DNA from: Thiovulum sp. ES
Lineage (GTDB): Bacteria > Campylobacterota > Campylobacteria > Campylobacterales > Thiovulaceae
Assembly: GCA_000276965.1 (NCBI GenBank)
Contig: AKKQ01000013.1
Coordinates: 1-38,159, forward strand
Direction: 5' to 3'
Length of the DNA: 38,159 nucleotides
A model generated the notes under the pieces. That model saw only the letters and a list, made by a program, of their open reading frames with translations. It ran no database searches and had not been told where the DNA came from. How positions within the stretch are numbered: the first letter of the stretch is position 1; every line of letters starts with the position of its first letter. This document shows, in pieces, positions 2,382 to 4,734 of the stretch. Both the position numbers and the translations under genes were made by a program.

Positions 2382-2390
2382 TTTTTTTTT
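2382..2390 (+). repeat. T9 homopolymer in a signal-peptide coding region
   Basis: Nine consecutive T lie within the signal-peptide codons of the SBBP-repeat gene and put the signal peptide and the body one base out of frame. Such tracts are classic slipped-strand contingency sites in Campylobacterota. Sequencing error in the tract is the alternative. Confidence 0.6.
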
Positions 2391-3882
2391 GAGTTTTTCA
2401 ACTCTTTTTGCTACGGAATGGGGTTATCAAATTGGAACACCTGAAAGTGATTCTGAACCAAGAATAGTAGCTTCTCCAAATGGAGATTTACTTGTTTGTG
2501 GACGAACATACGGAAATTTATATTCAACAAATGCAGGTGGTTCTGATATTTTCTTTGAAAGACTAAACTCTGAAACTGGAAATAAAATTATTGCAGGAAA
2601 ACAGCTTGGAAGTTCTGAAAATGATCAATGTTATGCAATTGCAACGGATTCTTCTTCAAATATGTATATTGCTGGTTGTGTTTCAGGAGCTAATTTTGGA
2701 ACATTTTTAGGCGAATTTGATGGATTTATAGCAAAATACAATAGTAGTGGAACAAAAATCTGGGGGAAACAATTTGGTTCATCTTTAGATGATATTGTTA
2801 AAAATATGGTGATTGACAAGCAGGGGAATATCTATATTTCTGGCTACACAAGGGGTAGTTTTGGAGGTGCACTTATAGGAACTATCGATACATTTATTGC
2901 AAAATATGACAATAGTGGTAATCAAATTTGGGTTAGAAAATTTGGTGCTTCTGGCTCTACTACTTATCCAGAGTTTGCTATTGATTTAGACTCTGATGGA
3001 AATATATATATTTCTGGTCGTACGGATGCAGACCTCTTTGGAACAAATGCAGGAAGTTATGATGTTTGGATTGTTAAATATAGTAATGATGGAACTAGAA
3101 TTTGGGCAAGACAACATGGTTCTGCTGGGAGTGATTACCCATATGATTTAAAAGTTGATAGTTTTGGAAATATCTATATTATTGGCGATACAGTGGGGGA
3201 TTTTGGTGCTATAAATGCAGGTTCTTATGATTTATTTTTTGCAAAATATGACAACAACGGAAATCAAATTTGGGTGAAACAATTTGGTGGTTCAGATCCA
3301 GATTATGGCAGAGCTGTTGAAATTGATTCCTTTGGATATATATATATTGGTGGATATAGTTATTTTGAATTTGGTGGAGGTCTAGGCTCTTTTGATGCTT
3401 TTGTCGCAAAATATGATCAAAATGATCGCCTAATATAGACTAGAAATTTTGGAACAAGTGAGGCTGATTACATCAAAACACTTACATTTGATGAAAATAT
3501 GAATTTATATGTTGCTGGTGAATCAAATGGGAATTTATTCGAGACAAATTCTGGTGGAGCGGATTTCTATGTTAAAAGATACGATTTTATAAATATGGTT
3601 TCAGAAGCTTCACTTGATTTATCAAACTACAAAAGAGTGAAACTTGGTTTTCTTAAAAATTTAGCTAGTGATAGCGACATAGTTTCAAAAGTCCAAGATG
3701 ATTTAGCAAACGGAACAATTTCAATTGGAAATCAATTTATGGAAGATATTTCACTGCAATATGATTTCAATACATCCGAATATATTTATGCAACAGTAGT
3801 TGATACTAACGATGTTTTAAAAATTCGCGGAAATACTTACAACAATTTGACTTTAAAAGTTGATGACATACATTTTAAACAA

Positions 3883-4260
3883 ATGGCTTCGCAATCCCCT
3901 TCCATAACCTCTCCGCTAAGGTAGGTTTGGGAGGGGTCAAGAAGCCATGAGACGACAGTCTCATTATCTATGACAAACTTCCATAGATTTATTATCTCGG
4001 CACTGTCACTATTTTTATAGGAGAAAAAGACCAGGATAATAGATTCTTGGAGAGAATTAGAAAAATTTTAAAACCCTTGTCGGAAACGAGAAGGTTGCAA
4101 GTTAATGCAAAAGTTCCTTTTCTTGCAGATAGAAGTCGTCAGACCTTATCATCATTAATTAGTCTAAGAAAAGTTGTTTAGCTGGTTCTAAACTTGCTTT
4201 TTTAGTCCGTATTTATGAAAAGCGAAGCCTCTTCCATAGTTCGTAAGAATTTGGGAGAGG
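3883..4260 (+). other. structured, hairpin-rich insertion of unknown family
   Basis: About 380 bases with many stems interrupt the SBBP gene. The two ends carry similar hairpins: CCCCTTCC/GGGAGGGG (3896-3903 with 3929-3936) and CCTCTTCC/GGGAGAGG (4228-4235 with 4253-4260), with related loops. Just outside each is one half of an 8-bp inverted repeat, GGCTTCGC (3885-3892) and GCGAAGCC (4222-4229). Inside are ATGAGAC/GTCTCAT with a GACA loop (3947-3964), ATCTATG/CATAGAT (3966-3988), a possible pseudoknot of GACAGT (3954) with ACTGTC (4002), a CTTGT-CGGAA-ACGAG hairpin near 4078, TGCAAG/CTTGCA near 4096-4127, and GTTTAG/CTAAAC near 4178. There is no sensible protein in it. It could be a non-autonomous IS200/IS605-type element, an orphan guide-RNA-like (HEARO/omega) RNA, or an intron remnant; I cannot assign it. 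Confidence 0.55.
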
Positions 4261-4734
4261 TAGATTTCACTAACTCAGGAAATTATAATTGGGTGAATGC
4301 ACCGTCAAGAATGGTTGCAGGTCGTGGATATTGGGTTAAAACAAATGAAGAGCGGTATAACATTAAATCATTGTCAGTTTCTGATTTTAACAATACAATT
4401 ATCGGAGATTATAACTCTTCAGAAATAAATTCATCGAACCTCATCGAACTTTTAAAATTAATGCCGAAAAAACATGAATGGGTTCTTCTTGGAAATGGTG
4501 GTAATGATATAAATATAACCTCGATTGCAGGAACTGAAAATAATTCGACAACTTTCTATTTTGGCGATTTGATTAATAAAAATGAGAATTGTCTTTCTGT
4601 TGTAATTTTTCATTGGAATGCTACCGATGAGGTCTGGATTAATGATTATGTAGATAGTCAAAAAACAGTTTCTACAATTCCTTCATTTTCTGGTTTTTGG
4701 GCGAAACAGACTCTTTGTGATAATTAACATTAGT

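What the first reader, a model, noticed from the sequence alone, without database searches (positions are those of the whole stretch)
3883..4260. Hairpin-rich element with matching end hairpins and inverted termini
Seen: two similar end hairpins (CCCCTTCC/GGGAGGGG and CCTCTTCC/GGGAGAGG, with related loops), an 8-bp inverted repeat GGCTTCGC/GCGAAGCC outside them, at least five internal stems and a possible pseudoknot, and no protein. It interrupts a secreted-protein gene. Subterminal palindromes fit a non-autonomous IS200/IS605-type element; the internal structure fits a guide-RNA-like or other ncRNA.
Basis: partly seen in the sequence, partly recalled or inferred. Interest (0 to 1): 0.68.

Follow-up and report, generated by a model that had tools for sequence, protein, structure and literature searches.

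The report
Transposon remnant carrying a guide RNA
A 392-base, protein-free jumping element of the IS605 type sits in a broken gene of a Thiovulum-like sulfur bacterium and still carries the folded guide-RNA scaffold that normally steers the transposon's DNA-cutting enzyme; it is a clear new example of a known kind of element, not a new kind.

Summary
The segment, refined to 3879-4270, is a complete non-autonomous IS200/IS605-type element (a PATE). It is one of at least four near-identical copies in the genome (97-98% identity over the matched parts). Its first 70 and last ~215 bases are the ends of a larger element encoding a TnpB-family protein; in the sister Ca. Thiovulum karukerense that element also has an adjacent, divergent Y1 transposase. 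The last ~200 bases fold into a structure with compensatory changes shared with TnpB elements of Bacillota (95.6% of pair cells kept). This is the position of a TnpB omegaRNA, ending at the right end so that the 3' flank would be the guide. The family inserts after TTTGA in both phyla; the window copy has TTTAA. Next to the left end the host gene has lost about 45-60 codons that homologues keep. Expression and activity are not shown, and the only full-length TnpB frame found has Gly for the RuvC-III Asp. Verdict: new member of a known kind.

The parts
3874..3878 (+). Left cleavage/target site (C_L, presumed TAM). TTTAA here; TTTGA or NTTGA in nearly all other copies, so a G-to-A variant in this copy.
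   Evidence: Alignment of 15 left ends of the genome; TTTGA also precedes the left end in Bacillus plasmid elements and in Ca. Thiovulum karukerense.
3879..4270 (+). Complete non-autonomous IS605-type element (PATE), 392 nt
   Evidence: Copies share this stretch and diverge outside it; removing exactly 3879-4270 joins the two host reading frames without a stop, moving the left border by one base does not.
3879..3948 (+). Left end: foot ACAAAT (CAA complementary to TTG of the target), outer stem GGCTTC 3885-3890 / GAAGCC 3941-3946, inner stem CCCCTTCC 3896-3903 / GGGAGGGG 3929-3936
   Evidence: Fold; 86-88% identical to left ends of the tnpB elements; pairing of foot and target is inference from sequence.
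3949..4055 (+). Filler specific to the short elements, not seen in the tnpB elements; forms its own stem ATTTATTATC/GATAATAGAT; origin unknown
   Evidence: 98-100% identical among C13, C38, C75, C4; 65% with a diverged copy C50.
4056..4178 (+). Remnant of the last 41 codons of tnpB (stop 4179-4181), 83% identical to P0001 residues 396-436
   Evidence: Protein search of own genome.
4072..4270 (+). Predicted TnpB omegaRNA (reRNA) scaffold: stems P1 4075-4094, P2 4095-4128 (two nested helices), and the right-end hairpin
   Evidence: Consensus structure with compensatory changes across 16 sequences from two phyla; covariance-model score 198 bits (the sequence is in the training set).
4228..4260 (+). 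Right-end hairpin CCTCTTCC/GGGAGAGG; GAAG at its foot (4224-4227) complementary to TTC of the right cleavage site
   Evidence: Sequence; 5 of 8 pairs show changes on both sides; foot/cleavage-site pairing is inference.
4265..4270 (+). Right cleavage site (C_R) TTTCAC, last bases of the element
   Evidence: Nine of eleven right ends finish ...GATTTCAC before unrelated sequence (one GATTTCGC, one GATTTCAT); Bacillota elements end GGTTCAC.
4271..4290 (+). Presumed guide of the RNA (TAACTCAGGAAATTATAATT), taken from the host gene; about 16-20 nt expected
   Evidence: Position follows the known TnpB architecture; inference. No second match beside a TTTGA in the genome at up to 3 mismatches.
2389..4727 (+). 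Host gene: SBBP beta-propeller-repeat protein, now a pseudogene (in-frame TAG at 3436-3438, this insertion, and 45-60 codons missing at the left junction)
   Evidence: ORFs and Pfam SBBP; alignment to three intact homologues L077, L078, L079.

Best explanation
The segment is a non-autonomous IS605-family element: the two ends of a tnpA-tnpB transposon joined across a short filler. It was presumably moved in trans by a Y1 transposase that recognises the two end hairpins, cuts after TTTGA at the left and after TTTCAC at the right, and pastes the single-stranded circle 3' of another TTTGA. Its right half is a TnpB omegaRNA scaffold. Because the element lies in the same direction as the host gene, read-through transcription would give an RNA ending in host sequence; a TnpB made elsewhere in the cell could trim it and use it to cut copies of the locus that have lost the element, so that repair copies the element back. 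Shown here: element identity, borders, copies, target, parent, conservation of RNA structure. Inferred: mobilisation in trans, transcription, processing, loading into TnpB, cutting. The confidence given is for identity and architecture; that the RNA of the short copies is actually used in trans I put at about 0.35-0.4. In this copy the changed target base and the loss of host sequence beside the left end make it likely that it is now fixed.
For: Copies: C13, C38 complete; C75, C4 cut by contig ends; a diverged C50; further isolated ends of the same type. Parent: 436-aa TnpB-family frame between the same left and right ends in C41 (NCBIfam guided_TnpB E = 5.7e-26, 91.7 bits, below the cut-off of 100). 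Sister species: same left end, Y1 transposase (Pfam Y1_Tnp E = 1.4e-36) and tnpB 73% identical, divergent. Target TTTGA in Thiovulum and in Bacillus elements. RNA: 95.6% of pair cells kept, 57 cells with changes on both sides, covariation score 0.454 against 0.177 +/- 0.018 in shuffles and at most 0.095 for slid structures. The diverged short copy C50 keeps the omegaRNA part (88-93%) much better than the filler (63-65%).
Against: No expression data. The only full-length TnpB frame found (C41) has Gly where eight relatives have the RuvC-III Asp; C8 and C35 keep the Asp but are broken by stops or frameshifts. This family's own tnpA is found only as a fragment (C19), so present-day mobility and cutting are doubtful, although the assembly is broken at just these repeats. 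The window copy and C8 share a broken pair in helix 3 (G-C to U-C). Conservation of the omegaRNA part in C50 could also come from recombination with tnpB copies.
Confidence: 0.92

Rival explanations
1. It is a PATE, but the guide-RNA part is an inert passenger: the right end simply has to be kept for transposition and the tnpB tail came along in the deletion that made the element. (A rival about function only, not about identity.)
For: Right-end sequences are needed for transposition anyway; 41 codons of tnpB remain in frame without a usual start; possible loss of active TnpB; the window copy has a broken pair in helix 3. A PATE-like IS605 element of Halanaerobium likewise keeps the last 58 nt of tnpB plus the right end (PMC7290912).
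Against: The retained part begins close to the 5' edge of the covarying RNA (4056 against P1 at 4075), about 170 nt upstream of the right hairpin, more than a Y1 transposase should need (established knowledge of IS608/ISDra2); the diverged short copy C50 keeps it best.
Confidence: 0.5
2. The two flanks of the element in this contig belong to different copies and were joined by the assembler through the repeat, which would explain the missing host codons. (A rival about the junction, not about the element.)
For: The genome is in 206 contigs, many of which end inside such elements; 45-60 codons are missing at the left junction.
Against: Both flanks encode parts of the same protein family in the right order and in frame, and no other left-end contig carries the expected ...GGAATTTGA or GAATTTGA flank.
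Confidence: 0.1
3. A cellular structured ncRNA or riboswitch unrelated to transposons.
For: Strong folding.
Against: Multicopy with fixed borders and different flanks, inside a reading frame, shared with tnpB elements; no Rfam match even at E = 1.
Confidence: 0.01
4. Part of the coding sequence of the host protein that only looks structured.
For: The reading frame continues 46 bases into the element.
Against: Three homologues have continuous coding sequence without it; other copies lie in unrelated contexts.
Confidence: 0.01

Closest known systems
PATEs (palindrome-associated transposable elements) of Haloquadratum walsbyi (PMC3119063)
   Same: Transposase-free, subterminal palindromes, no terminal inverted repeats, no target duplication, ends related to IS605-type elements, homogeneous expansion of one type.
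   Different: Here in Campylobacterota, and the retained right part is shown to be a covarying omegaRNA; that paper predates the omegaRNA concept.
PATE-like ends-only IS605 element of Halanaerobium hydrogeniformans (PMC7290912)
   Same: Left-end hairpin plus the end of tnpB (58 nt) plus the whole right end, 271 nt.
   Different: Single copy there, RNA not analysed; here at least four copies with a 107-nt filler and 123 nt of tnpB.
TnpB omegaRNA / reRNA of IS200/IS605 elements (PMC10278001)
   Same: RNA overlaps the 3' end of tnpB and ends at the right end; guide from the 3' flank.
   Different: Here carried without tnpB, so it would need transcription from outside and TnpB in trans.
IS605-type elements of Bacillus subtilis plasmids (L062, L063)
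   Same: TnpB about 53% identical to P0001, target TTTGA, right end ...TTCAC, same P1/P2/right-hairpin structure.
   Different: Autonomous, with tnpA and tnpB; another phylum.

Membership tests
IS200/IS605 family (non-autonomous derivative, PATE) | Imperfect subterminal hairpins at both ends, no terminal inverted repeats | tested here: met
IS200/IS605 family (non-autonomous derivative, PATE) | Multiple copies with fixed borders, no target-site duplication, fixed 4-5 nt target 5' of the left end | tested here: met
   borders after TTTGA and at TTTCAC, flanks differ, no duplication seen. The window copy itself has TTTAA.
IS200/IS605 family (non-autonomous derivative, PATE) | Ends shared with an element encoding a Y1 (HUH) TnpA and/or TnpB | tested here: met
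   tnpB in C41; tnpA and tnpB in the sister species with the same left end.
IS200/IS605 family (non-autonomous derivative, PATE) | Base pairing of hairpin-foot guides (G_L, G_R) with cleavage sites C_L, C_R | tested here: inconclusive
   ACAA/TTTGA and GAAG/TTTCAC are complementary by eye in Thiovulum and Bacillus; not tested statistically or biochemically.
IS200/IS605 family (non-autonomous derivative, PATE) | Mobilisation in trans by TnpA | not testable with these tools
   Own tnpA of this family seen only as a fragment.
TnpB omegaRNA (OMEGA system) | Conserved RNA structure overlapping the tnpB 3' end and ending at the right end | tested here: met
   24 pairs, 95.6% of cells paired, 10 pairs with changes on both sides.
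TnpB omegaRNA (OMEGA system) | Transcribed and processed, 3' guide from the flank, RNA-guided cutting next to the TAM | not testable with these tools
   Needs RNA sequencing and biochemistry.
TnpB omegaRNA (OMEGA system) | Intact TnpB nuclease with D-E-D RuvC triad available in the cell | tested here: inconclusive
   C41 frame intact but third Asp is Gly; C8 and C35 keep Asp but are interrupted; C47/C48 run off contig ends.
Rfam RNA family | Match to any of 4227 covariance models | tested here: not met
   none at gathering score in the window, none at E <= 1 in 3850-4300.

The most novel reading that the evidence does not exclude
The short elements are RNA-guided hitchhikers: stand-alone omegaRNA transposons selected to keep the guide scaffold so that a TnpB supplied in trans restores them after excision, a gene-drive-like miniature element.
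Probability: 0.35. Interest if true: 0.6.

Novelty: new member of a known kind. Interest (0 to 1): 0.42.

Why it matters
It shows a transposon family shared between Campylobacterota (only Thiovulum-like genomes among about 450 of the phylum sampled) and Bacillota, with a guide-RNA scaffold kept by protein-free copies. If those copies make usable guides, the strategy by which TnpB transposons restore themselves after excision would extend to their non-autonomous parasites. It also supplies a covariation-supported omegaRNA family absent from Rfam.

Tried and rejected
Rfam at gathering score and at E = 1: nothing. tRNA/tmRNA: none. The other two TnpA genes of the genome (C72, C73) belong to a different IS605 element with different ends, so they are not the evident mobiliser. 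The 64-codon frame in the short copies matches no protein family and is broken in C50. A promoter or terminator inside the element is not supported: counts equal those of shuffles. A second genomic site matching TTTGA plus the guide was not found. Viral contigs hold no relative by the pattern search, phage records only distant ones. The element itself is not in PLSDB plasmids. A TldR-type (nuclease-dead regulator) reading of the Asp-to-Gly TnpB was considered and set aside because that copy keeps its transposon ends and omegaRNA. Literature: PATE and omegaRNA papers were read; the library does not hold two main papers on TnpB transposon spread and diversity, so earlier reports of omegaRNA-bearing PATEs there cannot be excluded.

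Full report
Observation. The + strand folds at -126.9 kcal/mol against -87.5 +/- 5.8 for shuffles, z = -6.8. The 8-bp 'inverted repeat' exists, but its right half lies at the foot of the right hairpin and its left half pairs better with GAAGCC inside the left end, so the element has no true inverted termini.

Copies and borders. A search of the window's own genome (2.08 Mb, 206 contigs) gives 24 matches at E below 1e-4, the window included. Four short copies are nearly identical: C13 (window), C38, C75 and C4, the last two cut by contig ends; C50 holds a diverged fifth. Left ends start after TTTGA or NTTGA in nearly all of 15 sites; nine of eleven right ends finish ...GATTTCAC before unrelated sequence. 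This fixes the window element at 3879-4270, 392 nt. Removing exactly this stretch joins the host frames without a stop; moving the left border by one base does not.

Parent. In C41 the same left end (2-74) and right end (to 1529) enclose a 436-aa frame. It matches NCBIfam guided_TnpB at 5.7e-26 (91.7 bits, cut-off 100) and Pfam OrfB_IS605 at 3.4e-5, both below the curated cut-offs; the family lacks the usual zinc-finger cysteines (by eye), which may be why. Relatives annotated as RNA-guided endonuclease TnpB lie next to tnpA on Bacillus subtilis plasmids at about 53% identity. In Ca. Thiovulum karukerense the same left end is followed by a reverse-strand Y1 transposase and a forward tnpB 73% identical, the IS605 arrangement. 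Among 397 sampled genomes of the phylum no other has the protein at E <= 1e-40 (the sister genome was evidently not in that sample), while Bacillota have it sporadically. Horizontal transfer is the likely reason (inference).

The RNA. The short element shares with the tnpB elements the 3' end from 4056 on: the last 41 tnpB codons and the right end. An alignment of 16 such tails from Thiovulum and Bacillota gives four helices: P1 (4075-4094), two nested helices of P2 (4095-4128) and the right-end hairpin. 95.6% of pair cells are standard pairs; 57 cells carry changes on both sides against 22.7 +/- 3.2 in shuffles; slid structures fall to 40-57% paired. The structure was derived from this alignment, so the slide control leans in its favour, but compensatory changes between phyla in P1, P2 and the right hairpin are plain in the table. 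P1 and P2 lie in the tnpB coding sequence, so protein constraint acts there too. The position is that of a TnpB omegaRNA (known architecture; PMC10278001). The guide would be 4271 onward. The genome has no second site matching TTTGA plus that guide within three mismatches, as expected if the only target is the emptied site itself.

Recognition. By eye, the foot of the left hairpin (ACAA) is complementary to TTG of TTTGA, and the foot of the right hairpin (GAAG) to TTC of TTTCAC; Bacillus elements show the same (ACAA/TTTGA, GAAG/TTCAC). This fits the known IS200/IS605 scheme but was not tested statistically. The window copy has TTTAA, which weakens the left match; together with decay of the host gene (TAG at 3436-3438) this copy is probably immobile (inference).

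Host gene and junction. The element lies in an SBBP-repeat protein gene. Three homologues have about 45-60 more codons between the NNLTLKV block and the GNYNWV block, so host DNA left of the element is gone. The right flank, T AAC TCA ..., fits an original site TTT GA|T AAC in a GWEFDN context (inference from the homologues' GWEWDG and GWEYNG). Possible causes: a one-ended transposase event joining the left end to an upstream TTTAA, an ordinary deletion ending at the element, or an assembly join. The data do not decide.

Activity. The only full-length TnpB frame has Gly for the third catalytic Asp (HAGLSASYN against HADLSASYN in relatives and in broken copies C8 and C35). Other copies are broken or run off contigs. 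Whether any active TnpB or matching TnpA remains is open; the assembly fails exactly at these repeats.

Known or new. PATEs are known from Haloquadratum (PMC3119063), and a PATE-like IS605 remnant with the end of tnpB and the whole right end from Halanaerobium (PMC7290912). This is a new, well-supported member of that kind. What it adds is direct covariation evidence that the protein-free copies carry the guide scaffold.

Noticed in passing
L009 (C41) 123-1433: The only full-length TnpB frame of the family in the genome has Gly in place of the conserved RuvC-III Asp; the broken copies C8 and C35 keep the Asp. Decay, sequencing error or a nuclease-dead variant.
   Followed up: partly
window 3436-3438: In-frame TAG in the SBBP gene upstream of the element, where the repeat pattern expects TGG (Trp).
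   Followed up: no
window 3860-3880 and homologues L077, L078, L079: About 45-60 codons of the host gene are missing directly left of the element.
   Followed up: partly
L053 (C72), L054 (C73): A second, different IS605-type element (tnpA plus zinc-finger tnpB, GC-rich right-end hairpin CCCGCCCTAAAGGGCGAGGG) in the same genome, in two copies.
   Followed up: partly
L044: A contig labelled Chryseobacterium sp. ISL-80 carries a TnpB element about 95% identical in DNA to one of Bacillus sp. ISL-55, and its genome is grouped with Bacillus: probably mislabelled.
   Followed up: no
window 3949-4055: The filler of the short elements is of unknown origin and has no match outside them in the genome.
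   Followed up: partly
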